Assembly: GCA_900317425.1 (NCBI GenBank)
Contig: ONGR01000005.1
Location: 26,641 to 90,640 of the forward strand
Length of the DNA stretch: 64,000 nucleotides
Reading direction: 5' to 3'
Source of the DNA: an uncultured Eubacteriales bacterium
GTDB taxonomy: Bacteria > Bacillota > Clostridia > Oscillospirales > Oscillospiraceae
Below are positions 77-25,255 of this stretch, piece by piece. The translations under genes and the position numbers were made by a program. The notes beneath the pieces were generated by a model. It was not told the DNA's origin. It worked only from the letters and a program-made list of their open reading frames with translations, and did no database searches. Within the stretch, counting starts at the first letter, position 1. Every line of letters begins with the position of its first letter.

Positions 77-472
77 TTATGCCCGCTTCTCCACCTCCAG
101 GATGTGCTCCACGGGCACGTAGTGCTTGCGGCAGTTGGCGTAATAGACGACGGCGCAGTGGGCGTATTCCTCCTCCACCCGGGAAACCCGGGGGACCAGC
201 GGTCCGTCGGTCTCCTCCACGTCCGCCAGAAGAACAGCCCGGAGCAGGATATCCCGATAGCCCACGATCACGCCCCGGAAGGGCCGCTCCACATAGGCGT
301 GGTACGTCTTCTGCAGCCGCTCTCCCCGATAGCGGACCTCCTGAAGAACAGTCCTGCCGTGATCGGTCACGAACCGGCCGCAGAGGGGATCGTCCTTATC
401 CTGTACCAGGTGGCGTCCGTCCCGGACGGGGACCACGAAGCCGCCGCAGCGGACCAGATCAAACAGTTCCAT
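77..472 (-). CDS. Small hypothetical protein, distal gene of the AAA+/Hsp70 cluster
   Basis: A 131-residue soluble protein with no family I recognise. The start at 472 was chosen over an upstream in-frame codon at 505 because AAAGGAG sits seven bases before it and translation then begins MELFDLVRCGGF. The sequence looks like a compact beta-rich domain with many charged residues and three to four scattered cysteines, but no CxxC pair, signal peptide or membrane segment. It follows the large membrane protein gene after a 100-base gap that holds a stem-loop, so it may be translated or processed separately. Function unknown; membership in the cluster is inferred from orientation only. Confidence 0.55.
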   Translation of the reverse strand: MELFDLVRCGGFVVPVRDGRHLVQDKDDPLCGRFVTDHGRTVLQEVRYRGERLQKTYHAYVERPFRGVIVGYRDILLRAVLLADVEETDGPLVPRVSRVEEEYAHCAVVYYANCRKHYVPVEHILEVEKRA

Positions 473-534
473 GGGGATGCTCCTTTCGATCAAGCAGATT
501 GTCAATACGTCAGCATGAGGAAGTCTCCTGTGAT

Positions 535-566
535 CCGCAGGAGACGAATGCCGTTCTCTCCTGCGG
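535..566 (-). other. Stem-loop between the RCC1-like gene and the distal small gene
   Basis: A perfect 10-bp inverted repeat (CCGCAGGAGA at 535-544, TCTCCTGCGG at 557-566) lies just after the stop codon at 573. On the minus strand no run of T follows, so it is not a standard intrinsic terminator. It may protect the 3' end of the upstream message or set the ratio between the two genes. Confidence 0.4.
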
Positions 567-572
567 CGCCCA

Positions 573-3329
573 TCAGCTGCCGCTCAAATAGGCGGCCTGC
601 TGTTTCAAATCCTGCCAACCGATAATATGGATGGCACCGTCGGCCGTGTAGCCCACTGTGGTCGCGCCCATGGCCTCAATCCGGACGACGTCGGTCCAGT
701 CGCTGACGTCGCACTGGCCGTAGGTATTATCGCCCGCGGCCAGCACCGTTCCGTCGGACCGCAGGGCCACCAGGTGGTTGCTGCCGGCGGAGATGGCGGT
801 CACGTCGGTCCAGGAGGAGAGAACGCTCTCATCGAAAAGACTCTTTCCGTCGTCCCCCACCACGCCGCCATACAGCACTCTGCCGTCCCGGGTCAGGCCG
901 AAGACGTCCGTATGGTCACTGCAGGCGGCAACATCCCGAAGATCCGTCCAGCTCAGCACCGGCTGACCCCAGCTGCCGTGATAATAGGTGTACTCGTCCC
1001 AGGGTACGTCCACCGTGCCCTGTTCCGTCAGGGCAAAGACGGACAGGTCCTTGGCATGGGCGGCCGCCACCTTGACGATGCCGCTCATGCGTTGGCCGTC
1101 CCGGTTGAGGAGATAGCCCTCATCGTCGGAGTAGCCAACAGCGGAGCGCACGGTGCCGTCTGCGCACACGCCCAGCAGGCTACCGTAGCCGGGCGCACAC
1201 AGGGAGGTGATACCCTTCCAGTCACTGACGTCCACGGGATCGGCCTGCCAGTTGTCCACCAGGACGGTGCCGTCTTTTTTCACACCGGCCAGCACATAGG
1301 GGGACATGCAGCAGATGGAGGCCACGTCCTTCCAGGAGGAGTAATCCTCGTTTCCCGCGCCGCGGGTGCCGAAAGCTGTCACCCTGCCGTTGACGTCCAG
1401 GCAAAAGACGCCGTAGTAGGAGACCACCTGGCTGTATTCCCGGTTGGCAAGGCCCTGCTCCAGCTTCTCCTGCTCCTCGGTATAATAGGCGATCCGCTCC
1501 TGTTTATGCTTCGCCTGCTGCCGCAGGCCCTGATAGGCCGCGGTATCCACGTACATTGCCGGACGGACCAGGGCCTTGCTGTCCGGGGCGCAGTAATAGT
1601 ACACCTCCTTACCGAGGTCCGCACGGTACGCTGAGGCTATAATCCGGGACTCGCCAACGGGACATCTGAGCCACACCAGCGCGGCTCCGTCCTTCTGATA
1701 CTCGAAGGTCTCGGCGATCACCGCATCCGCTTCGGCGGTCATGGGCGCCGGGGCCGTCAGCATATAGGCGCTGCCATCCTCAATAAAGATCCTGTCGGCG
1801 GTGGTCTCCTGTTCCCCGGTTTTTTCAAAGAGAGAGTGTCCCTCTTCGTCGCTGAGGTAGCAGGTGGTCAGTTCCGTCTCGGGAATGACGCCCTGTTCCT
1901 CCGCGGTAAAGGCCCCGGTGTAGAACGTCCCGTTGAGCCAGCTGCGGATCGCGCTGTCGGCCCAGGAGTTGTCCTCGCCGCCCTCGTGATAGGACATCGC
2001 CGTCAGGCATGTATCGCACACCAGCAGGGCCCGTCCGCTCTCCACGGACTTGACGTGCCAGGAGATCCCTTCCGCTCCGTTGGCGGTGTCGCCGTCCTGT
2101 TCATAGCTGCCCAGGAGGACCGTTTCACCCGTCACGAGCCGGTCAAACGCCTGATACTTTGCCTCCGACCAGGTCGGGCCAAGGACAACGCCAATCACAG
2201 TGCCGAGGAAGAGGGGGGCCAGCCAGGAGCGCCAGCCGCTCTTCAGACGCTTGTCCTCCCTGCCCAGAAACTGCCACAGTTCCCCCGCCGCGCCGATCAA
2301 CATCAGCGCCAGGCCACCGAGAAACAGGCAGATGGAGATACGGTTCAGCGCGGCGCTGCCGAAGGAGTTGCCCACCGGCACACCGCCCATCAGAGCGATG
2401 GCGGCTGTCACCACCGCGGCGACGACGCCCATGAGGCGCAGGATGTTCCAGACGCCTCGTCCGTTATTCCCCAGCCAGCCGCCCAGGTTGGCGATGACCG
2501 TGCGGGACAGGCTGACCAGCAGGATCGCCGGCAGCACCGCCCAGGCGTGGGCCATGATCCACTCAGTCCCGCCGCTGCGGAACATGGTAAAGACAAACAG
2601 GGCTGTCAAAGCCAGATAGATCGGCAGCACGGTATAGCCCCTCTGCAGCCGTGTGTTCTGCTTTTTTTCCGTCCGGTTCGGCACGGACGGTTTGACGGTT
2701 ATCACAGGCGTGGGCTGCTGGGAAGGCCGGGTCGTCGTTACCGGTCTGGTGGTCGGCGTCGCCGGTCTGGGCGTTGGAGTCGCCGGTCTGGGCGTCGGCG
2801 TCACCGGCCTGGGCGTTGGAGTCGCCGGTCTGGGCGTCGGGGTCGCCGGCTTGGGCGTCGGCGTCACCGGCTTGGGTGTCGGGGTCGCCGGCTTGGGCGT
2901 CGGCGTCACCGGCTTGGGCGTCGGCGTCACCGGCTTGGGCGTCGGTCTGGTTCCCTCTCTGTCAATCAACTGTCCGAAGTCTTCCCAGCTCATCGGTCCC
3001 TGTCTTTTCGGGGGAGTGGACGGATTGCCGCTGGGCTGTTTGGTGGATGAGCCCGGCGTTTTGCCGGTCTTCGCAGCCTGCTCCGCCGCCAGTTCGGCTC
3101 TCCGGCGGTCGGCCTCGGCCTTCCACCTTCCATTCTTCGGAGATTCTGTTCTGGCTTTCCTTGTGATCTCCAGGGCCGAATTGTCCTTCGTCTTGACAAA
3201 GGCCGCCAGTTCGTCCAGGATCACGCTGTTGGACTTTCCCAGGAATACGATCGGATCCTTCTTTATGTCAAAGCCGCATCGGGAGCAACGGGTGTCACTC
3301 AGCTGCGCCCCGCATTTGGGACATTTCAT
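573..3329 (-). CDS. Five-TM protein: zinc ribbon, Thr-Pro repeats, DUF6273-like and RCC1-like domains
   Basis: A 918-residue membrane protein. Residues 3-18 form a CxxC...CxxC zinc ribbon. Residues 127-200 are a seven-residue Thr/Pro/Lys-Arg repeat. Five hydrophobic segments follow at about 233-250, 258-281, 295-316, 331-351 and 368-386. Residues 400-600 resemble the DUF6273 family (motif SWADSAIRSWLNGTFY). A short helical stretch precedes an RCC1-like beta-propeller at about 640-918 with recurring W-x-D-V and GTV/DG motifs. An odd number of helices with a zinc-ribbon N-terminus inside would put the propeller outside, so a sensor or surface-display role is plausible (inference). It lies directly downstream of the sigma/anti-sigma pair. 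It could instead be a structural anchor. Confidence 0.7.
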   Translation of the reverse strand: MKCPKCGAQLSDTRCSRCGFDIKKDPIVFLGKSNSVILDELAAFVKTKDNSALEITRKARTESPKNGRWKAEADRRRAELAAEQAAKTGKTPGSSTKQPSGNPSTPPKRQGPMSWEDFGQLIDREGTRPTPKPVTPTPKPVTPTPKPATPTPKPVTPTPKPATPTPRPATPTPRPVTPTPRPATPTPRPATPTTRPVTTTRPSQQPTPVITVKPSVPNRTEKKQNTRLQRGYTVLPIYLALTALFVFTMFRSGGTEWIMAHAWAVLPAILLVSLSRTVIANLGGWLGNNGRGVWNILRLMGVVAAVVTAAIALMGGVPVGNSFGSAALNRISICLFLGGLALMLIGAAGELWQFLGREDKRLKSGWRSWLAPLFLGTVIGVVLGPTWSEAKYQAFDRLVTGETVLLGSYEQDGDTANGAEGISWHVKSVESGRALLVCDTCLTAMSYHEGGEDNSWADSAIRSWLNGTFYTGAFTAEEQGVIPETELTTCYLSDEEGHSLFEKTGEQETTADRIFIEDGSAYMLTAPAPMTAEADAVIAETFEYQKDGAALVWLRCPVGESRIIASAYRADLGKEVYYYCAPDSKALVRPAMYVDTAAYQGLRQQAKHKQERIAYYTEEQEKLEQGLANREYSQVVSYYGVFCLDVNGRVTAFGTRGAGNEDYSSWKDVASICCMSPYVLAGVKKDGTVLVDNWQADPVDVSDWKGITSLCAPGYGSLLGVCADGTVRSAVGYSDDEGYLLNRDGQRMSGIVKVAAAHAKDLSVFALTEQGTVDVPWDEYTYYHGSWGQPVLSWTDLRDVAACSDHTDVFGLTRDGRVLYGGVVGDDGKSLFDESVLSSWTDVTAISAGSNHLVALRSDGTVLAAGDNTYGQCDVSDWTDVVRIEAMGATTVGYTADGAIHIIGWQDLKQQAAYLSGS
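2730..2951 (-). repeat. 21-bp tandem repeat encoding Thr-Pro stalk
   Basis: About ten tandem copies of a 21-base unit encode the seven-residue motif PTPKPVT and variants (K/R and V/A alternate). It lies between the zinc-ribbon region and the first membrane helix of the large membrane protein. Pro-Thr repeats of this kind are extended, and copy number of such DNA repeats often varies between strains. Confidence 0.9.
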
Positions 3330-3371
3330 TCTCTTTCCCTCCTGTTCTCTATCTGTCCAGGCCGCGGAGCG

Positions 3372-4070
3372 TCATCGCTCCACCATCACCGTGTACTTTC
3401 CCGGGCTGATGCCCTCGAACCGCACGTAGCAGATGGAGTCGTCGTATCGCACCAGTTCGATCATCTGCGGATCGGCATCGCCGTCATCCGGCAAGATGAG
3501 GACGCGGCTGCCGGCGGAATACTCCGCCGAATCGAAATACAGTGACAAGGTGCCGTCCAGTCCGATGCTGACCCGGTTCTTTTGTCTGTCGAACAGGCTG
3601 GACCGGATCACACTCTCGGTCTTTTCCACCTCGTCAGGCCCGGTGGCAGAGCGCATGACGGTCACCAGCCGGGGATAGGTCAGCGCTTCGGCGTTGATGC
3701 CGGCCAGCTCCCGCAGATTCTTCACCCGGAAGGACAGCCACAGTTTGAACCGTCTGCAGTCCTCCAGGATCTTCTCCCCCGCTTTTTCCGGCTCCGTAAT
3801 GAGCAGGGCGCGGAAGAGACGGATCAGCAGCTTCTCCTGCACGGTATCCACGGCGGCATATTCCTCCGCCCGGTCCCGCAGCGCCATCAGCCCGCGGTAC
3901 ATCTCGCCGCACGCCGGGCAGGACATCACGTGGCGGTTGATTCTGGCGGCAGTTTTGATAAAATCGCCGCCGCGGCCGTCCGAGAATACGTAATCGGCCA
4001 TCTCCTCGTAGGAGATGTGCTCCTCCGCCGCGGTTCGGCGGTCGGTCGTCTCAGTTCTCACGTTAGCCAT
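3372..4070 (-). CDS. Putative zinc-binding anti-sigma-like protein
   Basis: A 232-residue protein translated from an ATG that overlaps the end of the sigma-like gene by eight bases. Residues 47-54 carry the ZAS-type pattern H-x3-C-x2-C (HVMSCPAC), as in zinc anti-sigma factors of the RsrA/ChrR kind. The region before it has the EEMADYVFSD start often seen in such domains. The C-terminal part (about 130-232) looks like a beta-rich ligand or accessory domain, and no transmembrane helix is evident, so it would be cytoplasmic. Known: ZAS proteins hold their cognate sigma factor inactive. Inferred: it controls the partner encoded just upstream. I have not matched it to a named family. Confidence 0.6.
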   Translation of the reverse strand: MANVRTETTDRRTAAEEHISYEEMADYVFSDGRGGDFIKTAARINRHVMSCPACGEMYRGLMALRDRAEEYAAVDTVQEKLLIRLFRALLITEPEKAGEKILEDCRRFKLWLSFRVKNLRELAGINAEALTYPRLVTVMRSATGPDEVEKTESVIRSSLFDRQKNRVSIGLDGTLSLYFDSAEYSAGSRVLILPDDGDADPQMIELVRYDDSICYVRFEGISPGKYTVMVER

Positions 4071-4794: not shown

Positions 4795-4839
4795 CTGTCT
4801 CTTGCCTCTCTCAACATATCAAACGCAGATCCGCCGGTT

Positions 4840-5481
4840 TTATCGGATCTCTCCGGGCGGTTCTTCGGTCTCCTCCGCCATCCGGCGCGTCGCTTCTTTC
4901 CAGGTCTCCAGGGTCTCCCGGTACGGTACGCCCACAAGAAAAGCGTCCCTGCCCGAAATAAAGATCTGGATATCCCGGCTCTTGCCCTCATACAGCTCCC
5001 GATGGGGGAGATATCTGGTGGTGATATAGTGGACCGTCTGGTTGCTGGAGCCCTTCAGGCTGCTCCCGTCATTTAGCGCATCCACGTATTCTCCGTCAAT
5101 GATCAGATCCGCCAGGGAATCGACGATCTCCAGGATCTGCGGATTCTCCGTCCGGCGGAGCTCCTCCATGGTGTTCCCGGTGTAGATGATCACGCCGAGA
5201 TCCGTCCGCTGCCGCACCGCTTTGAGCAGGCGGCATAGCGCCTCCGGCTGGAGGAACGGCTCGCCGCCGCTGACGGTGATGCCCTCAATATCCTTCGTCC
5301 GGCACACCGTTTCGATGAGATCCTCCAGCTCCCAGACCGTTCCGCCCTCCAGAGGACGGGAGGCAGGGGACATGCAGCCGGGGCATCTGCGCAGGCAGCC
5401 CTGAAACCAGATGACCATCCTGGTGCCCGGCCCCAGGGCGGTGGTATGGGTCACCAGATTGTGCAGTCTAACCGTGCTCAT
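4840..5481 (-). CDS. Radical SAM protein, NrdG-like activase
   Basis: A 213-residue radical SAM protein. The cluster-binding motif C-x3-C-x2-C is at residues 29, 33 and 36 (GCLRRCPGC), followed by VSGGEPFLQP, the usual SAM-binding GGEP motif, and a glycyl-radical-activase-like body. Family: anaerobic ribonucleotide reductase activating protein (NrdG) and related small activases. Length matches NrdG, but no nrdD or other glycyl-radical enzyme lies in the window, and the gene overlaps the preceding gene by four bases (ATGA). It is therefore more likely a dedicated activase or modifier for a protein of this cluster than a housekeeping NrdG (inference). No auxiliary cluster domain is visible. Confidence 0.75.
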   Translation of the reverse strand: MSTVRLHNLVTHTTALGPGTRMVIWFQGCLRRCPGCMSPASRPLEGGTVWELEDLIETVCRTKDIEGITVSGGEPFLQPEALCRLLKAVRQRTDLGVIIYTGNTMEELRRTENPQILEIVDSLADLIIDGEYVDALNDGSSLKGSSNQTVHYITTRYLPHRELYEGKSRDIQIFISGRDAFLVGVPYRETLETWKEATRRMAEETEEPPGEIR

Positions 5482-5972
5482 TCGTCTCCTCCGGCCATAT
5501 CATGCAGCCTCTTTCCCATCAGGGAAGAGACACCTTTTGCGTAATCAATATTGGAAATGATCTCGGAGATCTGGACGGACAGCATGGGATAAAGTCCCTC
5601 CACGGCGCCGATCTCCGCCATTTTTTCGTCAAAATCCGTCTCCGCCTTCTCCACCTCTCCCATCTCAACCCGGCCGGTCTGCCGCCGCTCATTTGCCAGC
5701 TCCAGCGTCCGGTTATTGAGCAGTCGGATCTCCTCGATCATCTGGTAGCAGGAAAAGTACAATCCCGCATCCCGGCCGAAGCAGGCCAGGACGGAATCCA
5801 CGCTGCCGTCCAGCAGATCTCGGATCACGCTGTCGGAGAATCTGCCCTCCAGCTGTGCAAAGCCGTTGTCCCGGGCAAAGGCACTGATGCCGGCGCGCAG
5901 CCTGTCCCGGTCCAGCGGCACGCCCTTCAGCGCGCCGGCCAACCGGTCAAAAAGATATCTCTCCACGTCCAT
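5478..5972 (-). CDS. Small helical protein paired with the radical SAM gene
   Basis: A 164-residue, mostly helical, cytoplasmic protein with no family I recognise. The start at 5972 is preceded by an AGGGGG site seven bases upstream; the longer reading from a TTG at 5990 would swallow that site. Its stop codon overlaps the radical SAM start (ATGA), so the two are translationally coupled. The region around residues 80-115 is Glu/Arg/Lys-rich and likely coiled coil. Two cysteines (in SVLACFGRD and FSCYQM) are present. It could be a substrate or adaptor of the radical SAM enzyme, which is inference from the coupling alone. Confidence 0.55.
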   Translation of the reverse strand: MDVERYLFDRLAGALKGVPLDRDRLRAGISAFARDNGFAQLEGRFSDSVIRDLLDGSVDSVLACFGRDAGLYFSCYQMIEEIRLLNNRTLELANERRQTGRVEMGEVEKAETDFDEKMAEIGAVEGLYPMLSVQISEIISNIDYAKGVSSLMGKRLHDMAGGDE

Positions 5973-5986
5973 GTCTGCGCCCCCTC

Positions 5987-6850
5987 TCAAAGATTATGAT
6001 CGTCCTTGTGCCGCTCCGACTCCTTGAAGGCGATCATCTCCGCCCGCTGGACCGTCAGCTCCAAGCGGGCCTGTTTGATCTTCTCCGGGTCGCTGCTGTA
6101 CTCCAGGACGTCCACGTTCCGGGAAAAACGGTCCCAGGCCGTCTCGTCACCGCCGTTGAGGCGGATCACCTCCTGCTTCAGCTGCTCCGCCCTTCCGCCG
6201 AAATAGGCCTCCTGGACGGTGCGGCTTCCCACCAGTCCCTCCAGCTCATAGGCCTTCCGCTGGGCCTCCGGATAGGCGTTGACCGCCCAGCAGGAGGTCA
6301 CTTCGCCACGGCGCTGCAGCTCCTGCATGGCGTAGCGCTCCGTGATCCCCTCGTTCAGGGCGCGGTTGCTGTCCTCGGTCAGCTTGCCGTTCTCATATGC
6401 CGCCTCCCGGATCCCGGAGCGGTACACCGCCCGGTGGGGATCGGTGTCGTCCAGCTCGTTGTAGGAGGTGAGGTGAAGGGCCTCATGGGTGGTAACGTGC
6501 CGAATGACCTCCGGCGAGCCCTCCCGCATATAGATGCGTCCCTCGGTATCGTAGTGGCCCAGGACGCTGGGGTCCTTCTTGGGAAAACGCTGGCTGTACT
6601 CCTCGGAGGACAAGACCACCGGCTTTTTCTCCTCCCGCTCGATATCGATCCGGACCCGCTGTTCCTCCGGCATGACGTCCCCAAAGGTCTCGGTCATATG
6701 GCCGATGGTCTTCTCGTACGTCTCCGCCGAGATTTTGGCCGAGGACGTCTCCCCATCCCTGCGGGTCGTTGTCTCCGGGAGGGTCCGCTTCTTCTCGTCC
6801 TCCCGGGTCTCCCTGCCGCCGGTCTCACGCAGCCGCCGAAAAATGGCCAT
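5987..6850 (-). CDS. HExxH metallopeptidase-like protein
   Basis: A 287-residue protein with the zinc-peptidase motif HEALH at residues 122-126, followed about 40 residues later by NEGITE (166-171), which could supply the glutamate third ligand as in gluzincins. The first 60 residues are charged and probably disordered; the C-terminal 100 residues are helical. There is no signal peptide, so it should act in the cytoplasm. It starts one base after the stop of the HerA-like ATPase gene, suggesting the two work together. Known: HExxH with a downstream Glu is a metalloprotease signature. Inferred: proteolytic activity. Substrate unknown; a non-catalytic fold is possible. Confidence 0.6.
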   Translation of the reverse strand: MAIFRRLRETGGRETREDEKKRTLPETTTRRDGETSSAKISAETYEKTIGHMTETFGDVMPEEQRVRIDIEREEKKPVVLSSEEYSQRFPKKDPSVLGHYDTEGRIYMREGSPEVIRHVTTHEALHLTSYNELDDTDPHRAVYRSGIREAAYENGKLTEDSNRALNEGITERYAMQELQRRGEVTSCWAVNAYPEAQRKAYELEGLVGSRTVQEAYFGGRAEQLKQEVIRLNGGDETAWDRFSRNVDVLEYSSDPEKIKQARLELTVQRAEMIAFKESERHKDDHNL

Positions 6851-6851
6851 A

Positions 6852-9359: not shown

Positions 9360-9411
9360 GTGAGATCACCTCGTCCTATCAAATGGTATAAATGGTATTG
9401 ATTCCGGCTCT

Positions 9412-10161: not shown

Positions 10162-10192
10162 CGCACTATCCTCACATCCACACACAGCCGCC

Positions 10193-10750: not shown

Positions 10751-10769
10751 AATGGACTCCTTTCCGCTT

Positions 10770-11756: not shown

Positions 11757-11757
11757 G

Positions 11758-14959: not shown

Positions 14960-14991
14960 GGTATCTCACCCTCTTCCCGGGTCGGGACAGG

Positions 14992-16368: not shown

Positions 16369-16391
16369 TGCTCGCTACCTCCGTCATCAAG

Positions 16392-17054
16392 TCACCGCGC
16401 CGATGCCGCCTTGCAATCCTTGCAGATGCTGGGGATATGAGACCAGTCCTCATGGTACCGGATGGACCTGCCGCATTTTCTGCACGTGGTCTCGTGCCAC
16501 TTGGCCCGCTCCCGCTCCTGGCACGATTTGCACAGGTCGGGAACCCGGTTCCAGTCCACCCGGTATCGGATCGTCCCGCCGCAGCACTTGCAGCTTTTTT
16601 CCTTCCAGTTGGCCCTCTCCCTCTCGTTGGCGGCCTTGACCGCCTGGAGCCTGGCCTGGAACGCGTCTCTGGCCCGCCGGAGTCTGTCCTTGGCGCTTCT
16701 CAGCTCGGACAGCGCGGCGTTGAACTCGCTCTTCGCCACCTCCATCTGGGTGTAGTAGCCCTTCTTGATGTCGTACTCACGCTGCAGAGCCTCCCGGAAG
16801 GACTGGGCACGATACTTGTGATTCTCCGCATCGTACTTGTTCCGGGCCTGATAACAGATCTTCATCGCCTCGTACTCGTTGTCCGCCGAGCGCTTCAGGT
16901 CGGCAATTCTGTCATTCGCCGCCTCGATCTGACTTCTGATCCCGTCCCGCCGGGCGCTGATGGGATCTAGCCTTGCCTTGGCGGAATCCACCGCCCTTCG
17001 GGCCGCGTCCCGCTCGTTTGCCAGTCTTTCCAGTTCGTAGTCTTTTCCTGCCAT
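16392..17054 (-). CDS. Coiled-coil protein ending in twin zinc ribbons
   Basis: A 220-residue protein. Residues 1-150 are a charged coiled coil. The C-terminus carries two tandem copies of a zinc-ribbon unit, CKCCGGTIRYRVDW...LCKSC and CRKCGRSIRYHEDW...ICKDC, so the unit C-x2-C...RYxxDWxxxPxxCKxC is clearly duplicated. No membrane segment. Zinc ribbons of this form bind nucleic acid or protein; which applies is unknown. It is the second gene of the operon, 67 bases after the giant AAA+/protease gene, with an AGGAGG site upstream. Confidence 0.6.
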   Translation of the reverse strand: MAGKDYELERLANERDAARRAVDSAKARLDPISARRDGIRSQIEAANDRIADLKRSADNEYEAMKICYQARNKYDAENHKYRAQSFREALQREYDIKKGYYTQMEVAKSEFNAALSELRSAKDRLRRARDAFQARLQAVKAANERERANWKEKSCKCCGGTIRYRVDWNRVPDLCKSCQERERAKWHETTCRKCGRSIRYHEDWSHIPSICKDCKAASAR

Positions 17055-17121
17055 AGCGTTTTTCCTCCTGAAATCGTACTTTCAACAAATAGGAACGTCG
17101 GTCTGGCAGAAAAGTCGGATC

Positions 17122-20100
17122 TTATTTCAAAAATTCTTTCCAGAAATAACGAACCGGTTTCATGTAGTTGTATTTGTTGAAATCCGCGCGGCCCTGGGGT
17201 CCTCTGGCGCCCCGGAGAACGCCGATCACACACCCGTCATGCCGGGCAATGATAGGGCCGCCGGAATCGCCGGGCTCGGCGTTGCCGGAGAAGTAATAGA
17301 TCTCGCCCAGTTCTCCGTCTCCCACCGACTCCCCTTCCGTGGAGACGGTGCCGGGTGCCTGCATGATGCCGACTCTGCCGCTGGGATATCCGTACAGGAC
17401 GCAGTCCTCGCCGAAGCGGATCTTGCGATCCTCCGGCGCCAGCTTCAGATAGGGCAGGGGCTCCTCCGTCCGGATCCGGATGAGGGCCATGTCCAGGTCG
17501 GGCCGCGTGTTTTTGATGACGAAATCACACACGGTGCCGTTCTGGAAGAAGGCCTTCCGCTTTTTCCGGGCCAGGTTGGCAAAGTTGCCCTTCTCGGAAA
17601 CGGCGTGGGCACAGGTGATGGCGTAACCGTCCGGGGAAATGACGAAGGCGGTGGCGGATCCGTATTCCGTCTCCAACCGGAGCACAGACGCTCTGCAGCG
17701 CTCCGGGAAGTCCTCGCTCCGGGCATCCTCGGAGCCATAGGGATCGGGCAGCTCCGCGATCACGGAGCGGGGGATCAGTCCCAATCCCGTTTCCACCGGC
17801 CGGGTCTCCTCCGCCGCAGCAGTCGGTTCCGAGCCACTCAGCGCGTCGATATATCTCCGGTACCCCTCCGGAATGTCCTCCGGAAGAATCGTGATGCGAT
17901 CCACGGCGCCGGTGGCGCCGCTCTCCACAATTCTGTCGGCCGCTCTGCCCACGCAGGCATCCAGATAACGCTTCACAGTGCGGGCGTTTCCGAACTCCTT
18001 GTCACGGCGCATAACGGACAGGGCATTCCGGGTCAGCGCAAGGAACTCCGGCGTCAGCTCCACGCCGGCGAAGTTGGGATCTGTCCGGGGCAGCAGCTTC
18101 ATGATCTCCATCAGCTCCTCGTCGGAATAATCCTCGAAGTCGATGGTCGCCTTGATCCGGCTCGCCATACCGCTGTTTGCCTCCTTAAAGATCTCCATCT
18201 TGTCCTTATAGCCAGCAAAGATGACGCAGATACGGGAGGCGTTGTCCTCCATGAACTTCATGATGGTGGTATAGGCCTCCTCGTCAAACTTGGAGGAGAA
18301 TTTGCCGTAGACACCGGGATCCGTATTGACCAGCTCGTAGGCCTCGTCCACGAACAGGACGCCGTCCAGCGCCTTGCGGCACTGCTCCCTGGCCTTGATG
18401 GACGACATGCCCACGTATTCGGCCACCAGGTCCGCCTTGGACACCTCTACGGTGTGGCCCTTTTTCAGCAGGCCGTTGGCCTTCAGGATCTCGCCCACCA
18501 TACGGGCCACCGCCGTCTTTCCGGTGCCGGGATTGCCGGCAAAGATGTAGCTGCCGGGTCCGTTTTTCGATTTGCTCATGACCAGCTTCCGGTTGATGAT
18601 CGTCTTCAGCTGCTTCTTGACGTTCTGCAGTCCGACCATCTCGTCCAGCTTTTGCATGGCCGCCTTCCGCATTTGAAGGCGCTCCTGTACGGTGTGACTC
18701 TCCTCTCTGTAATCCGCCGGGATATCCTCTTCCCGCAGCTCAAGGCTGGCCAGTCTGCTTCTGGCAGACCGCCGCGCCGCGTTGCCCCGGCAGTCGTCCA
18801 GGAAGTTTCTCACGTCGCCGGCATTGCCGAATTTTTCGTCCCGGTTTTCCCACATCTGCCGCAGGGCCGACTTCGCCAGGCCCGCAAAGCCATCCGTCAT
18901 GGGAAGGCCGTCGTTTTTCGCCATCAGGCGCAGGATCTCATACAGCTCCTCCGGCGAATAGTCCGGGAAGGTGATGATATTGCTCTCGGGGATCCGTCTG
19001 GACATGCCGTCATTGGCCTCTCTGAATCTCCGCATATCATGGGGGTAGCCGGCACAGATCACGCACAGACGCTTCCGGTTGTTCTCCATAAAGGCCATCA
19101 GCGTGGTATACGCCTCCCTGTCAAAGGGGGATGAGAACTTCTCGCTGGTGCTCTCATCGGTGTTGACCAGCTGATAGGCCTCGTCGATAAACAGGACGCC
19201 GTCCAGCGCCTCCTCGCACTTCTCCCGGGTCTTGATCCCGGATCCACCGATATGATCCGCCACGAGATCGGCCTTCATGACCTCCACCACGTGTCCCTTT
19301 TCCAGCAGGCCCTGGGCGTGAAGGATCTTGCCCATCAATCTTGCCACCACCGTCTTGCCGGTACCGGGATTGCCGGAGAAGATATAGTGGCCGGGGCCGG
19401 CGTCGCCGCCGTAGATGGCGTTGGCAAACGTCTCCTGCAGCTTTTCCTTCACCGCTTCCAGGCCGACCAGCTCGTTCAGTTCCCCGGACGCGCGCTCATA
19501 CTCGGCCTGCTTCTCGGAATCCGAGATCACAGCACGCCCGACGGGGGCCAGGCCGGTCGTCTTTTCCGTCCGGCTGGGGGCGGCGTAGATCCGTTCGAGG
19601 CTGGTGGCGCCCATGCCGGACACCGGGCGGATCTCTCTGTTCCACAGGTCGCCGGCTTTTTTCACCAGGGCCTTCACCACCTCGTCATCCCGGAGAGCTA
19701 CCTCCAGATTCCGCAGGGATCCCACGTACCAGGTGTTGTTGGCCAGATCCCGGAATTCCTCTTTCGTACGGTCGCTGGAATCACAGCGGGTGGTGATAAA
19801 TTCCGCCAGGGCGTAGATTTTTGCATAAGGCAGGTCGTCCAGACGCCGGTCACCCTTCACCTTCATGCGGATCAGCAGATTCGCGATCTCATCCTTGCCG
19901 GGGTGTCCGGCAGCAATGAAGATCCGGCCGTCTGCCGAAAGCTCGTCCACAAAGGCTTGGCAGTATGCTTTTGCCCCGCTGCTGCCCTGCAGCCGGGAAA
20001 CGGCTCGGTTGATGGTGTTGTCGACACGCTGAAATACCTCGGAGACAGCAGGAGAAAACAGGCGATAAAGGTCCTCCTCCTGGTCGGCGGTGATGATAAT

Positions 20101-22512
20101 GACGTTATTTCCCGCGGCTGTGATGTTTTCGTTCAGCCTGCGGATCACCATATTGGTCAGATAGCCCTGCTCCAGCAGCAGCTCCAGCGGCATCACGATG
20201 GCGGTTTTCAGAATATCGGATTTCAGCGCGGCGCAGACCTCCGTCGTGATGAAGGCCTCAAACAGCTCCTTGGGCTTTCTCTCTTCGCCGGCGGGCGACG
20301 CCGCTTGGCCCTGTCCGTTGGCGGAGGGGCGGATAATGGTGCGAATGACCCGCTTTCCGAACCGGGATACCGCCGTCTTTTTCTTCGCCGCAGGTGTTCT
20401 TCTTCCGCCCATCTGCGCGCGGATGGGGTTGTCCCCCTTGGCCGCGGCTTTGTCAAGGGAACGGCAGAACCCCTCAAAAGCCTCCGCAGACCGTTCCTGT
20501 CCGTCCCCGAAGGCCTCCTCAAACCGGGCCGCATGGAGGAAGGATTGCTGAGAGAGCTCATCATAGGCCAGCACGGGATAGTTATCGCCCTCGTCTTCGC
20601 TGGTATTCCCCACGATGATGACCCTCTGATACCCCTGCTCTTTCAGCAGGGCGTGGAGGAAGGCATTGTAGTCCAGGTACTCCAGGGCGTTGGTGGCGAA
20701 GTATTCGTTGCGGGGGGCAATCAAGTAATGGAGTCTGCTGATATTGGAGTCAAAGCAGCGGAATCTGGGGCCCTCGGCCAGCGGCGGTCTTTCTGTGGGG
20801 GCAAGGGTGCATCCCGGCTTTTCCTTTTCCGGCCGGGGCTGCTCCCCATGGGCAGCCATCTCCACCGTCTCCTCCGCAGCCGTATCCGGTGCGGCCACCA
20901 TTTTTGAAGTCTCGTCGGGTGCTTTCGGTCTTTCCGTTTCCTCCTTTGCGGCAGGGACCTCCGGCTGGAAGGCGGGAGTCTCCTCTTCCGCCGTCATCGG
21001 AACGGTGTCAGGTTCCGATTGAACAACAGGAACCTCCGGCTCGCGGGTAGGAGTTTCCTCTTCCTCTACCGTCATGGGAACGGTGGTGGGTTCCACCGGA
21101 GCAGCAGGCGTCTCCGGCTGGCGGGCGGGAGTTTCCTCTTCCTCTACCGTCATCGGGATGATGTCGGGCTCCGGTTGAACAACAGAAACCTCCGGCTGGC
21201 GGGCGGGAGTTTCCTCTTCCTCCACCGTCATGGGGATGGTGTCTGGCTCCGCCGGAACAGCGGGAGCCTCCGGCTGAGCAGCCGGTTTCTTCTCCTCAGC
21301 CACCGGAAGAACGGGTGTCTCCGGTTGGGACACAGGTGCGGCGGTATCTTTCGCCGCAGGAGCCGGTTCTTCTTTTTCGGGCAGGGGCTCCTTGGAATAG
21401 TCCCGCTTCACCATATCCTCGGTGATGGGGCCGAAAGGTTTCTTCGTTTTTGCAAAAAAGCCCAGGTCTCGATTGTTGGCCTTACAGGTGAGCTTCGTGC
21501 CGATCAGATCGTCTCTGCCCGAGAGGTAGCAGGCGTTTTTGTCCTGACCCTTGAACAGTAAATCGTCCTGGTCCCGGAACCACATATAGTAGAGCGATTC
21601 GGGACAGTCGGATGCCACCACCTCGGCCTGGAGGTAATTTCGCACCTTTCCCCGCTCCGTGCAGGGCTTGAAGTGGATCTGCACGTCGCCAGTTGGCTTA
21701 CTCTTGGGCGGCTGGTTGGTGCGGGGCGTGTTGACAGGGCCCTGCACCGGAGCGGCGGGGACCTCGTCCGGGCGGAGGGGCCCGTACTGGGCGGACAGGA
21801 CCTGCCCCGTCTCGTTGTTGGTCATCTCAACGATGATGGTCTTTCCCGCCATCCAGGGCTGCACGCGCAGAATATAACCCTTCTGGGGCAACGTGCCGTT
21901 TCTGCCCAAAACCTTCCACTGGCGGGTGTAGGCGAATCTGTCCTTGACGTCGCTCAGATTGGATTCCAGCAGGAACTCCTCCGCGCCGGTGGTCTCGTCG
22001 ATGCTGTTTCGGAACGTCAGCGTCAGGGTACCCCGGACACCGGAGATCTTCTCATTGATATACGTAATACCCAGCTGCAGAACGAGAGAAAAATTCTCCA
22101 AAATCTGATTTGTATCCGATGGGAGCAGCTGCTTCTCATACTCCAGGCGCGCCTCATATGCCTGCTCCGTTTCGTTGGGAGCTTTGCCCTCGTGGGCATA
22201 CTTGCTGCCGATCCGCTGAACGTTGCCGGCCGCATCCGCCAGAGGGATATTGTTCAATTTGATCAGAAACCTGTTGTCATGGAGGATCTCGCCTGCCATC
22301 GGCGCTCTGCCTCTGTTGAAGCCGCCGGAAATCCGCTCATAGAGATAGCGCAGAATGCCTTCGCTGGTCTTGCGAACCAGCCGGCAGCACTCCGCGTACT
22401 CCCCGGCGTTATATTTATCCTCGATCTCCCGGCAGTTGGCCGGCAGATCTCTGCTGCAGCTTTTATAATCCTCGTTGGTGATATGATTGATGATTTCGTA
22501 ATCGTAACTCAA
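17122..22512 (-). CDS. Giant fusion: HEPN-like, Ig-like, two CbxX AAA+ domains, trypsin-like protease
   Basis: A 1796-residue first gene of the operon, read from TTG with GGAGGG seven bases upstream. Residues 1-160 resemble DUF4145/HEPN domains and contain R100-x6-H107, the HEPN catalytic pattern. Residues 160-365 look like two Ig-like beta domains. Residues 375-580 are an acidic Pro-rich linker with repeats. Residues 580-965 are alpha/beta and may be a degenerate ATPase. AAA+ domain 1 has Walker A GNPGTGKT at 1047-1054 and Walker B at about 1107-1111; AAA+ domain 2 has GNPGTGKT at 1326-1333 and Walker B at about 1386-1390; both are of the CbxX/CfqX/SpoVK type. Residues 1605-1796 are a trypsin-like protease with H1636, D1674 and S1750 (GDSGGP). 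No signal peptide, so intracellular. Joining a remodelling ATPase to a serine protease suggests triggered proteolysis (inference). Confidence 0.85.
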   Translation of the reverse strand: MSYDYEIINHITNEDYKSCSRDLPANCREIEDKYNAGEYAECCRLVRKTSEGILRYLYERISGGFNRGRAPMAGEILHDNRFLIKLNNIPLADAAGNVQRIGSKYAHEGKAPNETEQAYEARLEYEKQLLPSDTNQILENFSLVLQLGITYINEKISGVRGTLTLTFRNSIDETTGAEEFLLESNLSDVKDRFAYTRQWKVLGRNGTLPQKGYILRVQPWMAGKTIIVEMTNNETGQVLSAQYGPLRPDEVPAAPVQGPVNTPRTNQPPKSKPTGDVQIHFKPCTERGKVRNYLQAEVVASDCPESLYYMWFRDQDDLLFKGQDKNACYLSGRDDLIGTKLTCKANNRDLGFFAKTKKPFGPITEDMVKRDYSKEPLPEKEEPAPAAKDTAAPVSQPETPVLPVAEEKKPAAQPEAPAVPAEPDTIPMTVEEEETPARQPEVSVVQPEPDIIPMTVEEEETPARQPETPAAPVEPTTVPMTVEEEETPTREPEVPVVQSEPDTVPMTAEEETPAFQPEVPAAKEETERPKAPDETSKMVAAPDTAAEETVEMAAHGEQPRPEKEKPGCTLAPTERPPLAEGPRFRCFDSNISRLHYLIAPRNEYFATNALEYLDYNAFLHALLKEQGYQRVIIVGNTSEDEGDNYPVLAYDELSQQSFLHAARFEEAFGDGQERSAEAFEGFCRSLDKAAAKGDNPIRAQMGGRRTPAAKKKTAVSRFGKRVIRTIIRPSANGQGQAASPAGEERKPKELFEAFITTEVCAALKSDILKTAIVMPLELLLEQGYLTNMVIRRLNENITAAGNNVIIITADQEEDLYRLFSPAVSEVFQRVDNTINRAVSRLQGSSGAKAYCQAFVDELSADGRIFIAAGHPGKDEIANLLIRMKVKGDRRLDDLPYAKIYALAEFITTRCDSSDRTKEEFRDLANNTWYVGSLRNLEVALRDDEVVKALVKKAGDLWNREIRPVSGMGATSLERIYAAPSRTEKTTGLAPVGRAVISDSEKQAEYERASGELNELVGLEAVKEKLQETFANAIYGGDAGPGHYIFSGNPGTGKTVVARLMGKILHAQGLLEKGHVVEVMKADLVADHIGGSGIKTREKCEEALDGVLFIDEAYQLVNTDESTSEKFSSPFDREAYTTLMAFMENNRKRLCVICAGYPHDMRRFREANDGMSRRIPESNIITFPDYSPEELYEILRLMAKNDGLPMTDGFAGLAKSALRQMWENRDEKFGNAGDVRNFLDDCRGNAARRSARSRLASLELREEDIPADYREESHTVQERLQMRKAAMQKLDEMVGLQNVKKQLKTIINRKLVMSKSKNGPGSYIFAGNPGTGKTAVARMVGEILKANGLLKKGHTVEVSKADLVAEYVGMSSIKAREQCRKALDGVLFVDEAYELVNTDPGVYGKFSSKFDEEAYTTIMKFMEDNASRICVIFAGYKDKMEIFKEANSGMASRIKATIDFEDYSDEELMEIMKLLPRTDPNFAGVELTPEFLALTRNALSVMRRDKEFGNARTVKRYLDACVGRAADRIVESGATGAVDRITILPEDIPEGYRRYIDALSGSEPTAAAEETRPVETGLGLIPRSVIAELPDPYGSEDARSEDFPERCRASVLRLETEYGSATAFVISPDGYAITCAHAVSEKGNFANLARKKRKAFFQNGTVCDFVIKNTRPDLDMALIRIRTEEPLPYLKLAPEDRKIRFGEDCVLYGYPSGRVGIMQAPGTVSTEGESVGDGELGEIYYFSGNAEPGDSGGPIIARHDGCVIGVLRGARGPQGRADFNKYNYMKPVRYFWKEFLK
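20953..21270 (-). repeat. 78-bp tandem repeat in the acidic linker of the giant AAA+ protein
   Basis: About four copies of a 26-residue unit with the core IPMTVEEEETPARQPE encode residues 415-520 of the giant protein. The copies differ at several positions, so the array is not freshly amplified. It forms a flexible acidic linker between the Ig-like and ATPase parts. Confidence 0.8.
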
Positions 22513-22879
22513 CGATCATCCCTCCCCATAAACTGCGGTATCGTCTCATAGTAAGGCAAAACGGCTGTCACCAGCTCTGCCGAATGATCTCGTCTATCTC
22601 AAACGCTTCCAGGGACCCTTCGTCGGACGGAATCACCGTTTTTTTGCAAAAAGTGCATCTTCCGGGAGGCCTCTCCGCTGCCAAACGGTCCCTATTCTGC
22701 CTATTATAATGGTTATTTTACTATACCACATGACAGCACAATGTTCCACTTTTTTTCGCAAAGATTTCCGCTGGCCCGACTCTTTTTTGCGGCTGCGCTC
22801 ATCTCACCGTTGCCGTTTTTTCCCGAAACTGTTATAATGCAAAAAACGGCGTGCCGAAGGTGGAAAGCGAGGTTATACC
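22513..22879. promoter_or_regulatory. Divergent intergenic control region of the cluster
   Basis: These 367 bases separate the heads of the operon (minus) and the second AAA+ gene (plus). There is no credible gene. The plus-strand promoter is clear (22810-22838). On the minus strand a TATAAT occurs at 22703-22708 and a TATAGT about 18 bases further upstream, but neither has a good -35; a GGAAC lies upstream at a spacing that an ECF-type sigma could use, which is only suggestive. The leader of the giant gene would be about 190 bases. Confidence 0.5.
22810..22838 (+). promoter_or_regulatory. Promoter of the divergent AAA+ gene
   Basis: TTGCCG at 22810-22815, a 17-base spacer, and a perfect TATAAT at 22833-22838. 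It sits 42 bases before the ATG at 22880, which has GAGG seven bases upstream. This is a housekeeping sigma-A type promoter. Confidence 0.75.
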
Positions 22880-25255
22880 ATGGATCAGCAGATAGAGGCC
22901 AAAACTGAAGAATACCTCTCCGAATTGGATACATATCACCTCTCCGCGGCAGATCAGGACGTTCTGCGGGGCTATTTCAGATATCTTTTCCAGGACAAGA
23001 TCCGTTCCATCCCCTATCACTTCCTGGTGCAGGCGGACACGGACAGCCGGGGGCTGGGTTTTTCCCTGAAGCTGATTGAGATCGTTGAATGCATCACCAG
23101 CCGAAGCCTGCTGGTGCAGCGGTTTACTGAGCCGGTCCTGCTGGATAAGCCTCAGCAGGACAAGTATGACAAGTGCGACGCCATGTTGGTGGGCGGCTGC
23201 TTTTCGGACCAGAGCTATTATCCCTCGGATGACGACAGCTCTGTCGACAAGTCGGCGAAGCGGAACTATGACTACCGTTGGGACAAGATCATGGCTTACT
23301 TCGATTACCGTCCCGAGAAGCTGTTCGTTCTGTACGGCCCACGCCAGATCCTCCAGGGGCGCATCCGGAATAATCACCGCATGTATTACCGCTTCTTCAA
23401 GCACCATATCACCTTGGGCAACATGACCGAGGAGGAGGTGCTGAAGCTTCTGACCAAGCGAATCTCCTCCAAAATCGGCAGATGCACCCCCGACTTTCAG
23501 GAGAGTCTCCGGGAATACGTGTATACCGTGTATCCCAAGGCCGATCTGAAGAACACGGAATTTGTGGACGATCTCTACAACTGGATGGTGGCCCTGACGT
23601 TCCAGAAAACAAAGGACTGCAGCTATTTCAGCAGCAGCAGCATCCCCTTCTATCACCGCAACGCCTCCTTTGAGAGCATCGACCGGGAATTCCAGCAGCT
23701 GGTCGGTCTGGAGGAGGTGAAGGAGACCTTCCGGAATATCGGTATGCTTTGCCAGAGCATGCCTGGGGCGGCGGAAAAGCCCTATCTCCACATGGTTTTC
23801 CGTGGCAATCCCGGAACGGGAAAAACCACCGTCGCCCGCCTGATGGCCAAGCTGCTGAGCTCTATGGGCGTTATCAGACGCAATCACGTGGAGGAGGTCA
23901 TGGCGTCGGATCTGCTGGGCGCCTACACCGGACAGACGGCGCCGAAGGTCCAGTCCATCCTGCAGCGCGCCGCCGGCGGCGTACTGGTCATCGACGAGGC
24001 GTATCTGCTGAACACAGATTCCGGCCAGGGGTACAGCCACAGCTACCGGGAGGAGTGCATCGGCGTACTCCTGAAGGCCATGGAGCAGCGCACGGATCCT
24101 GTCATCATTTTCGCCGGCTATCCCAAGGAGATGGACGCGTTTCTGAAGAGTAACCCCGGTCTGGGTTCCCGGATCGGTTACGATATCACCTTTGCCGATT
24201 ACAGCACCCAGCAGCTCCTGGATATTTTCAAGAGCATGTGCCAGCGCTCCGGCTACCAGTGCAGCGAGGATACCCTGGCCGCTGTGGAGCGGAAGATCAC
24301 CTCCCTGCGCTACGAGGAGCACTTCGGAAACGCCCGGTCGGTGGAAAACGTATTCAACCAGTCGGTCATTGAGTGCCTGCGCTCCGATCCGGAGAGCCGC
24401 ATGATCCTGCCGGAGCATATCGTGGTGAAAAAGGATCTGAAAACCATCGAGGAGCTTCAGGACCAGCTCAAAAAAATGGTGGGCATTGAAAATGCCAAGC
24501 GGACCGTTCTGGAGCAGATTATGAGCAACCGCTTCTCCAGGGAGATGGGGAAGCCGCTCCCCGTTTCCAACAACATGATCTTCGTGGGAAACGCCGGCAC
24601 GGGAAAGACCACCACCGCAAAGCTGTGCGCAGAGATGCTCTTCAGCATCGGCGCAGCCAAATCGCCCCGGACGAAGATGATCTCGGCAAAGGATCTGTAC
24701 GTCCAGGACGTGGCGGAAAAGCTGAACGACATCTGCAAGGAGACCATGGGCGGCGTCCTGTTTATCGACGAGATCTATCTCCTGCAGAGCAGCCCCTACA
24801 AGTGTGCAGAGGTGGTATCCGTTCTGCTGGAACTGCTGGAATCCCGAAAGGAGGACATCTCCTTTATCCTGGCCGGATACGATCAGCAGATGGAGGATTT
24901 CCTCAGCGAGAATCAAGGCCTGCGATCCCGGTTCCCCATCACCGTGCATTTTGATGACTTCACCGAGGACGAGCTCTGCCAGATCTTCGTCCAGAACTGC
25001 GAGAGCGGCGGCATGAGCGTCAACGACGCCGCCCTGGACCGGTTCCGCACCGTGATCAGGCGGGAGATGAAGAAGGACAACTTCGGCAACGGCAGAACGG
25101 TCCGGAACATCTACGAGCAGGCCTTCCGGCGCCACGCCGTGAACTTCTACGCAGGGGACAAACCCCTCGACGCCGCCACCATCACCGCCGAGGATATTGC
25201 CGAACTGACCGATGTGGGCGGCTCCGGCACACGGATCGGCTTCTCCGCCGAATAA
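22880..25255 (+). CDS. Tandem CbxX/CfqX-type AAA+ ATPase
   Basis: A 791-residue protein. Residues 1-265 form an alpha/beta region without a P-loop, possibly a degenerate ATPase. AAA+ domain 1 has GNPGTGKT at 309-316 and Walker B GGVLVIDEAYLL at about 366-377. AAA+ domain 2 has GNAGTGKT at 570-577 and GGVLFIDEIYLL at about 624-635. Both carry the FAGYPKEM / LAGYDQQM stretch and the arginine-containing segments typical of the CbxX/CfqX/SpoVK/EccA group. The domain order matches the ATPase core of the giant protein encoded divergently, so the two may co-assemble (inference). No protease or HEPN part. It ends at a strong terminator. Confidence 0.85.
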   Translation: MDQQIEAKTEEYLSELDTYHLSAADQDVLRGYFRYLFQDKIRSIPYHFLVQADTDSRGLGFSLKLIEIVECITSRSLLVQRFTEPVLLDKPQQDKYDKCDAMLVGGCFSDQSYYPSDDDSSVDKSAKRNYDYRWDKIMAYFDYRPEKLFVLYGPRQILQGRIRNNHRMYYRFFKHHITLGNMTEEEVLKLLTKRISSKIGRCTPDFQESLREYVYTVYPKADLKNTEFVDDLYNWMVALTFQKTKDCSYFSSSSIPFYHRNASFESIDREFQQLVGLEEVKETFRNIGMLCQSMPGAAEKPYLHMVFRGNPGTGKTTVARLMAKLLSSMGVIRRNHVEEVMASDLLGAYTGQTAPKVQSILQRAAGGVLVIDEAYLLNTDSGQGYSHSYREECIGVLLKAMEQRTDPVIIFAGYPKEMDAFLKSNPGLGSRIGYDITFADYSTQQLLDIFKSMCQRSGYQCSEDTLAAVERKITSLRYEEHFGNARSVENVFNQSVIECLRSDPESRMILPEHIVVKKDLKTIEELQDQLKKMVGIENAKRTVLEQIMSNRFSREMGKPLPVSNNMIFVGNAGTGKTTTAKLCAEMLFSIGAAKSPRTKMISAKDLYVQDVAEKLNDICKETMGGVLFIDEIYLLQSSPYKCAEVVSVLLELLESRKEDISFILAGYDQQMEDFLSENQGLRSRFPITVHFDDFTEDELCQIFVQNCESGGMSVNDAALDRFRTVIRREMKKDNFGNGRTVRNIYEQAFRRHAVNFYAGDKPLDAATITAEDIAELTDVGGSGTRIGFSAE

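What the first reader, a model, noticed from the sequence alone, without database searches (positions are those of the whole stretch)
77..25255. A candidate undescribed 17-gene protein-remodelling system
One apparent 22-kb operon combines a HEPN-like/AAA+/trypsin fusion, an Hsp70-like ATPase with coiled-coil partners, a HerA-like ATPase with an HExxH protein, a radical SAM activase, sigma/anti-sigma genes and a membrane RCC1-like protein; a second tandem AAA+ gene is divergent. I know of no described system with this set. Known: AAA+ proteins, trypsin-like proteases and HEPN domains recur in NTP-dependent conflict systems; Hsp70s and AAA+ also recur in stress and assembly machines. Inferred: a triggered proteolysis/remodelling machine tethered to the membrane. 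Signal peptides are absent, so most components act inside the cell.
Basis: partly seen in the sequence, partly recalled or inferred. Interest (0 to 1): 0.95.

Follow-up and report, generated by a model that had tools for sequence, protein, structure and literature searches.

The report
Hsp70–AAA+–protease gene system, undescribed
A bacterial operon built around a shortened heat-shock-type chaperone, a radical enzyme, coiled-coil proteins and a giant motor-plus-protease protein turns out to have a five-gene core that recurs in distant bacteria, so it looks like a real, unnamed molecular machine, possibly one that responds to invaders.

Summary
The gene set is real: fifteen minus-strand genes with gaps of at most 67 bp lie at 573-22512, plus a small ORF downstream and a divergent tandem-AAA+ gene. 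It is not an accident: a locus from another clostridium (L016; Hsp70-like proteins 41% identical) keeps 14 of them in the same order. The unit that recurs widely is smaller: a lidless Hsp70-like ATPase, a coiled-coil protein, an NrdG-like radical-SAM enzyme, a second coiled-coil protein, and a tandem AAA+ ATPase, which in six clostridial loci carries a complete trypsin domain. It occurs in Clostridia, Cyanobacteria (once on a mobilizable plasmid), Chloroflexi, Brocadia and Thiomargarita. Another 53 loci hold a related Hsp70 with other partners and no radical-SAM gene. Eight literature searches found no description; the nearest published kinds, the NTPase-chaperone conflict systems of Kaur et al. 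2020 and CoCoNuTs, have defining features that the window lacks. Best reading: a chaperone-gated unfoldase/protease switch, probably an anti-invader system; function is untested. The HEPN claim is undecided. HerA, HExxH, sigma/anti-sigma and RCC1 genes are accessory.

The parts
17122..22512 (-). g16 giant, 1796 aa: helical N-terminus of unknown type, low-complexity Pro/Glu linker, AAA+-like module without P-loop (about 585-960), two AAA+ domains of SpoVK/CbxX type with Walker A and B motifs, C-terminal trypsin-like protease (TCAH, GDSGGP)
11758..13557 (-). g12 Hsp70-like ATPase, lidless (NBD + SBD-beta); likely start at the ATG eleven codons in; core
10770..11756 (-). g11 coiled-coil protein directly after Hsp70 (ccN); core
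4840..5481 (-). g05 NrdG-like radical-SAM enzyme (CX3CX2C); core
14992..16368 (-). g14 coiled-coil + small beta domain (ccC); core
13520..14959 (-). g13 paralogue of g14
16392..17054 (-). g15 coiled-coil with C-terminal zinc-ribbon-like repeats (by eye), 70% identical in L016
10193..10750 (-). g10 zinc-ribbon protein (by eye); weak blastp relatives in 15 of 79 loci, 13 of them type B
9412..10185 (-). g09 zinc-ribbon membrane protein (three hydrophobic C-terminal segments)
6852..9359 (-). g08 HerA-like ATPase; accessory (window, L016, G692)
5987..6850 (-). g07 HExxH protein (putative metalloprotease)
5478..5990 (-). g06 small protein of unknown function, conserved in L016
4063..4794 (-). g04 ECF-like sigma factor (region 2)
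3372..4070 (-). g03 putative zinc-binding anti-sigma factor (Hx3Cx2C by eye; Pfam zf-HC2 E 0.07, below cut-off)
573..3329 (-). g02 membrane protein: zinc ribbon, four hydrophobic segments, DUF6273, RCC1 repeats
22880..25255 (+). g17 divergent tandem AAA+ (SpoVK/CbxX type); membership untested
77..505 (-). g01 small ORF at operon end, no Pfam family; membership doubtful

Best explanation
An Hsp70-like ATPase that has the nucleotide-binding and beta substrate-binding parts but no alpha-helical lid works with its coiled-coil partner to hold a client, either a sensor/inhibitor or an invader's protein. It hands the client to a ring of the tandem SpoVK/CbxX-type AAA+ protein, which unfolds or remodels it; in many clostridial forms the fused trypsin domain cuts what is unfolded. 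The radical-SAM enzyme modifies a member of the set and so arms it or sets its redox state. The window adds regulation (sigma/anti-sigma), a HerA pump with a metalloprotease-like partner, and membrane proteins. Such a triggered switch most likely serves in conflict with phages or plasmids. Shown: gene content, conservation, intact ATPase and protease motifs. Inferred: client hand-over, order of action, radical modification, anti-invader role.
For: Gene set kept: 14 genes in the same order in L016, 26-70% identity. Core kept: of 79 loci found with the Hsp70-like profile alone, 15 hold a g05-like radical-SAM gene by blastp (E<=1e-4) within the fetched flanks, 14 a giant-like protein of 73 bits or more, 12 both; none of the 53 type B loci has the radical-SAM gene. 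In Thiomargarita (L067) the radical-SAM, ccC and full AAA+ genes lie just beyond the first fetched flank, on the same contig, so 16 of the 26 other loci have it nearby. The window's genome has one other g05-like gene, far weaker (48 vs 481 bits). Same strand in 17 of 17 loci examined, 2 gene steps apart in 12 of 17 (counting from any Hsp70-family gene in the locus). CX3CX2C in 18 of 18 radical-SAM proteins; the two phosphate motifs in 79 and 80 of 80 Hsp70-like rows. Alignment to DnaK ends at residue 464 of 615. Conflict flavour: sparse (2 of 150 family, 2 of 295 order, 2 of 391 class genomes, own included); mobilizable plasmid in Calothrix; neighbours elsewhere: WD40-TIR, DO-GTPase2, GAP1-N2/M in Brocadia, EAD4-TPR and FGE-sulfatase in Tychonema, type I restriction-modification genes in Viridilinea, a McrB-like gene (by eye and motif) and a DUF2357 (McrC N-terminal) protein in one bacterium.
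Against: No function is tested. The window itself sits among housekeeping genes (by eye: rpoB/rpoC on one side; rRNA-methyltransferase-like and metallo-hydrolase-like genes on the other), not in a defence island; PADLOC gives only low partial scores (10 of 17 proteins scanned). Many neighbours in other loci are ordinary genes (aldehyde dehydrogenase, SecA, alkaline phosphatase, UbiA), neighbours were picked by hand and no enrichment was tested. Loci L064, L091 and L092 have neither radical-SAM nor giant in the fetched flanks, L075 only a weak giant hit. Of six genomes searched, those of L064 and L091 hold a strong radical-SAM relative, but on another contig; those of L092 and L050 only weaker ones (143 and 132 bits), elsewhere; that of L075 none. 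The DO-GTPase2 hit in Thiomargarita is below its cut-off (22.4 vs 27 bits). Eight AAA+ proteins lack the trypsin motif. CbxX-type AAA+ genes are common in the class (83 of 391 genomes), so that member alone is weak evidence. The glycyl-radical motif search in the 17 proteins gave only one hit, a chance-looking one in g01, so the radical-SAM substrate is unknown.
Confidence: 0.5

Rival explanations
1. A stress or protein quality-control machine: Hsp70-like plus AAA+ protease removes damaged or aggregated protein under a dedicated sigma factor, with no role in conflict.
For: Hsp70, AAA+ and trypsin-like proteases are classic quality-control parts (established knowledge); sigma/anti-sigma pair; window among housekeeping genes (by eye).
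Against: Very sparse distribution, plasmid carriage and conflict-type neighbours in several phyla.
Confidence: 0.25
2. An assembly, cytoskeletal or secretion device: Hsp70-like and long coiled-coil proteins build a scaffold, SpoVK/EccA-like AAA+ and HerA energise assembly or export, and membrane proteins anchor it.
For: Several coiled-coil proteins; SpoVK, CbbX and EccA models score highest on the AAA+ parts; g08 passes the Pfam cut-off of a type IV coupling-protein model in its ATPase region (TrwB_AAD_bind, 22.4 vs 20.5 bits); membrane proteins g02, g09.
Against: HerA and the membrane proteins are not in the recurring core (HerA and g09 relatives in 1 of 79 loci; G692 besides); the only WXG100 hit, in g13, is far below its cut-off (14.1 vs 27.3 bits).
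Confidence: 0.15
3. A chance mosaic: unrelated genes gathered in one place.
For: The full set beyond the core is seen only in L016 and in part in G692 and L050.
Against: 14-gene colinearity with L016 and recurrence of the core in several phyla.
Confidence: 0.03

Closest known systems
GAP1-N2 GTPase-centric conflict systems with HSP70 (Kaur et al. 2020, PMC7159879; outline, passages and sections 27-29 seen)
   Same: HSP70-type chaperone in mobile neighbourhoods of Firmicutes and others; the related Brocadia locus L060 has DO-GTPase2 and GAP1-N2/M neighbours, Thiomargarita a sub-threshold DO-GTPase2 hit
   Different: No DO-GTPase, GAP1, GrpE or FNIII family among the Pfam hits shown for the 17 window proteins (for g17 the best 25 of 41); the parts read do not describe radical-SAM with tandem SpoVK-type AAA+ and Hsp70
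CoCoNuT / NxD McrBC systems (PMC11090510; passages and section 10 seen)
   Same: Hsp70-like NBD/SBD, coiled-coils, sometimes SpoVK-like AAA+; L069 has a McrB-like gene with an NxD-type motif and a DUF2357 protein directly before the core
   Different: No DUF2357 or McrB family among the hits shown for the window; the paper reports degenerate Walker-type motifs in CnuD, whereas the phosphate motifs are kept here
DnaK/Hsp70 chaperones
   Same: NBD and SBD-beta by profile comparison
   Different: No lid; 21% identity in that alignment; special neighbours
SpoVK / CbbX / EccA AAA+ ATPases
   Same: Best NCBIfam models for g16 and g17
   Different: Below these models' cut-offs; tandem AAA+ with a degenerate third module and, in g16, a trypsin domain
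NrdG / pyruvate-formate-lyase activase radical-SAM enzymes
   Same: Fer4_12, CX3CX2C
   Different: Below the NrdG cut-off (94.3 vs 126.1 bits); no convincing glycyl-radical partner in the operon

Membership tests
GAP1-N2 GTPase-centric conflict system | DO-GTPase and GAP1 proteins | tested here: not met
   No PF19993/PF19975/PF20013/PF20014 among the hits shown for 17 window proteins (g17 list cut at 25 of 41)
GAP1-N2 GTPase-centric conflict system | HSP70 (with GrpE) in one theme of these systems | tested here: inconclusive
   Hsp70-like present; no GrpE family hit shown, coiled-coil partners could be analogues
MoxR-vWA ternary systems | MoxR AAA+ with vWA protein | tested here: not met
   No vWA family shown; AAA+ are SpoVK/CbxX type
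CoCoNuT | NxD McrB-like GTPase and McrC N-terminal DUF2357 | tested here: not met
   Not among hits shown for the window; next to the related core only in L069, by a motif search over 28 locus ids and blastp over the ORFs of 82
Hsp70 | ATPase domain with phosphate-binding motifs | tested here: met
Hsp70 | beta substrate-binding domain | tested here: met
   alignment to DnaK reaches residue 464; weak in this part
Hsp70 | alpha-helical lid | tested here: not met
   protein ends 31 residues after the aligned part
HEPN RNase | HEPN fold with R-x4-6-H | tested here: inconclusive
   no family hit, low-confidence helical model; motif seen by eye only
Trypsin-like protease | catalytic His and GDSGG Ser | tested here: met
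Known PADLOC defence systems | full match of system proteins | tested here: not met
   10 of 17 proteins scanned; only partial low-score hits

The most novel reading that the evidence does not exclude
A new class of prokaryotic immune or cell-death switch in which a lidless Hsp70, armed by a radical-SAM enzyme, gates a tandem AAA+ unfoldase that carries or recruits interchangeable effectors (trypsin in Clostridia; WD40, TIR or EAD proteins elsewhere), found in five named phyla and on a plasmid, with a sister branch (type B) in gut Clostridia that has other AAA+ proteins in place of the radical-SAM/tandem AAA+ part.
Probability: 0.35. Interest if true: 0.88.

Novelty: new variant of a known kind. 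Interest (0 to 1): 0.7.

Why it matters
If right, it adds a chaperone-gated proteolytic switch to the known range of bacterial conflict systems and links an Hsp70 to a radical enzyme, a pairing I recall from no described system. The core is small (five genes) and occurs in a named culture-collection strain (Catenibacillus scindens DSM 106146) and on a natural plasmid, so it can be tested. It also gives partners to genes now annotated only as 'Hsp70 family protein', '4Fe-4S single cluster domain-containing protein' and 'AAA family ATPase'.

Tried and rejected
Chance cluster: rejected by L016 colinearity. Known defence system: PADLOC scan, low partial hits only (10 of 17 proteins given). HEPN test: Pfam on the isolated N-terminus, PDB sequence search, structure model; none decides. 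Structure search of the giant's first 1010 residues: weak AAA+ matches, best E 0.01, so 'degenerate AAA+' is tentative. Structure search of g14: no credible match. Empty-site test in two same-genus genomes: in G125 (2 contigs) the two flanking genes lie about 550 kb apart, in G036 on different contigs; the stretches fetched show no simple empty site, so insertion is unproven. HerA as anchor: 17 of 391 genomes match, but apart from own and G692 the listed places align only from residue 309 onward, the ATPase part; whether those genes lie near Hsp70-like genes was not examined. AAA+ as anchor: too common. Plasmid search with the window's own Hsp70-like protein: no match; with the Calothrix one, one match over 98% of the query, 46 further records with weaker ones. 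Glycyl-radical motif: only a chance-looking hit in g01. First Hsp70 tree used a wrong outgroup (an antisense ORF); with true DnaK the A and B labels separate by one change, support 85, 0 of 500 shuffles as low (one partial row, L053, dropped; L014, labelled A, falls beside the B rows on a long branch; 10 rows in no group). My first reading that Thiomargarita lacks the radical-SAM gene was an edge effect and is corrected.
Full report
What is there. Fifteen minus-strand genes, g16 (giant) to g02 (RCC1), run from 22512 to 573 with gaps of -38 to 67 bp; a small ORF (g01) follows 67 bp on, and a tandem AAA+ gene (g17) lies divergent at 22880-25255. G+C at third positions is 0.74-0.86 in these genes.

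The set is kept as a set. The closest, L016 (an uncultured clostridium), holds g16, g15, g14, g13, g12, g11, g10, g09, g08, g07, g06, g05, g04 and g03 in this order, with one extra gene between g09 and g08 that matches g02 only over its first 43 residues; identities run from 26 to 70%. At such divergence a shared order of 14 genes is strong evidence for a working unit.

The recurring core. By plain blastp with window proteins, 15 of the 79 loci hold a g05-like radical-SAM gene, 14 a giant-like protein of 73 bits or more, 12 both. Clustering of the genes of 82 locus ids (the 79, plus G203 and both halves of G692) shows the order Hsp70-like, coiled-coil ccN, radical-SAM, coiled-coil ccC, tandem AAA+, or a rearrangement of it. 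Profiles built from these members list all five in L016, L060, L069, L076, L078, L079, L082, L083, L084, L089, L094 and L011 (most members were part of the profiles, so this is a listing, not a test; ccN is weak in L016, L069, L089 and L094). Thiomargarita (L067) joins them: its radical-SAM, ccC and AAA+ genes lie on the same contig, partly beyond the first fetched stretch. Hosts are Bacillota, Cyanobacteriota, Chloroflexota, Planctomycetota, Pseudomonadota and an unassigned bacterium. L064, L091 and L092 lack both radical-SAM and giant in the fetched flanks and L075 has only a weak giant hit; the genomes of L064 and L091 hold a strong radical-SAM relative on another contig, those of L092 and L050 weaker ones, that of L075 none. 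A Calothrix plasmid typed as mobilizable carries Hsp70, a TPR protein part of which matches ccN, the radical-SAM protein, ccC and AAA+ on one strand.

A second branch. 53 of the 79 loci carry, beside a related Hsp70-like protein, other families (F1 zinc-ribbon, F2, F4 or F5; often AAA+ proteins F3, named by eye) and no g05-like gene. F2 is weakly related to the AAA+-like module without P-loop in the giant. On a tree of Hsp70-like proteins the two gene contents separate by a single change. This branch is the internal control for the radical-SAM association: 0 of 53 against 15 of the other 26 loci, 16 with Thiomargarita.

Rarity. With the single protein, matches at 1e-10 were in 2 of 150 family, 2 of 295 order and 2 of 391 class genomes, own included each time; distant members may be missed. 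The class is not named by the tools; that it is clostridial is inferred from L065, whose contig has the length of the one in same-family genome G134.

Molecular reading. Hsp70-like: phosphate motifs kept, profile alignment with DnaK over the nucleotide-binding and beta substrate-binding parts, no room for the lid. Giant: two AAA+ domains with Walker A and B motifs; a well-modelled 585-960 module that resembles AAA+ only weakly and has no P-loop motif; trypsin with His and Ser motifs in the window, L016, L078, L083, L011 (G203) and L015 (G692), and the start of one in L076 at the edge of the fetched stretch; none in L060, L067, L069, L077, L079, L082, L084, L089; L094 is cut off. The N-terminus differs between window and L016, which would suit a variable sensor or effector part; HEPN is undecided. 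Radical-SAM: 18 of 18 keep CX3CX2C; no convincing glycyl-radical motif in the operon, so a target within the set is inference.

Role. Neighbours in other loci include WD40-TIR, TPR, DO-GTPase2 and GAP1-N2/M in Brocadia, a sub-threshold DO-GTPase2 hit in Thiomargarita, EAD4-TPR and FGE-sulfatase in Tychonema, type I restriction-modification genes, an AAA_21 gene and a sub-threshold HNH hit in Viridilinea, and in L069 a McrB-like gene whose motif reads NxD (by eye) with a DUF2357 protein, in one tight run with the core. These are parts of published or predicted conflict systems (Kaur et al. 2020, PMC7159879; CoCoNuTs, PMC11090510). Ordinary genes also occur nearby, neighbours were chosen by hand, and no enrichment test was made. 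Conflict is therefore the favoured but unproven reading.

Comparison with print. Searches found no paper describing this set. Seen: outline, passages and sections 27-29 of PMC7159879, passages of PMC8195603, passages and section 10 of PMC11090510, term look-ups in PMC13092281 and PMC12839542 with no occurrence. Most subscription papers and bioRxiv preprints are outside this library, so absence from print is limited to it.

Verdict. A real, conserved and apparently unnamed system; novelty lies in the five-gene core, not in a 17-gene machine. I class it as a new variant of the NTPase-chaperone-gated conflict kind, with about one chance in three that it deserves its own class.

Noticed in passing
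window 2704-2793 (+): ARAGORN calls a tRNA-Asn antisense inside the RCC1 gene; probably a false positive.
   Followed up: no
L069:2-6042: McrB-like gene with an NxD-type motif and a 1386-aa DUF2357 protein run straight into the radical-SAM/ccC/AAA+/Hsp70 genes: a possible bridge between this core and CoCoNuT-like systems.
   Followed up: partly
L073, L078, L083: Three extra tandem Hsp70-family genes precede the core in ruminococci.
   Followed up: no
L017-L059 and others (type B loci): A large second gene set around a related Hsp70-like protein: F2, coiled-coil, zinc-ribbon, F5, F4 and often two AAA+ proteins, at times with RCC1 proteins; not looked up in print as such.
   Followed up: partly
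L077:10314-11098: A nucleotidyltransferase-like and a HEPN-like small gene pair (read by eye) after the Tychonema core.
   Followed up: no
L060:13890-16934: DO-GTPase2 and GAP1-N2/M genes lie next to the Brocadia Hsp70-like core, joining this family to the GTPase-centric systems.
   Followed up: partly
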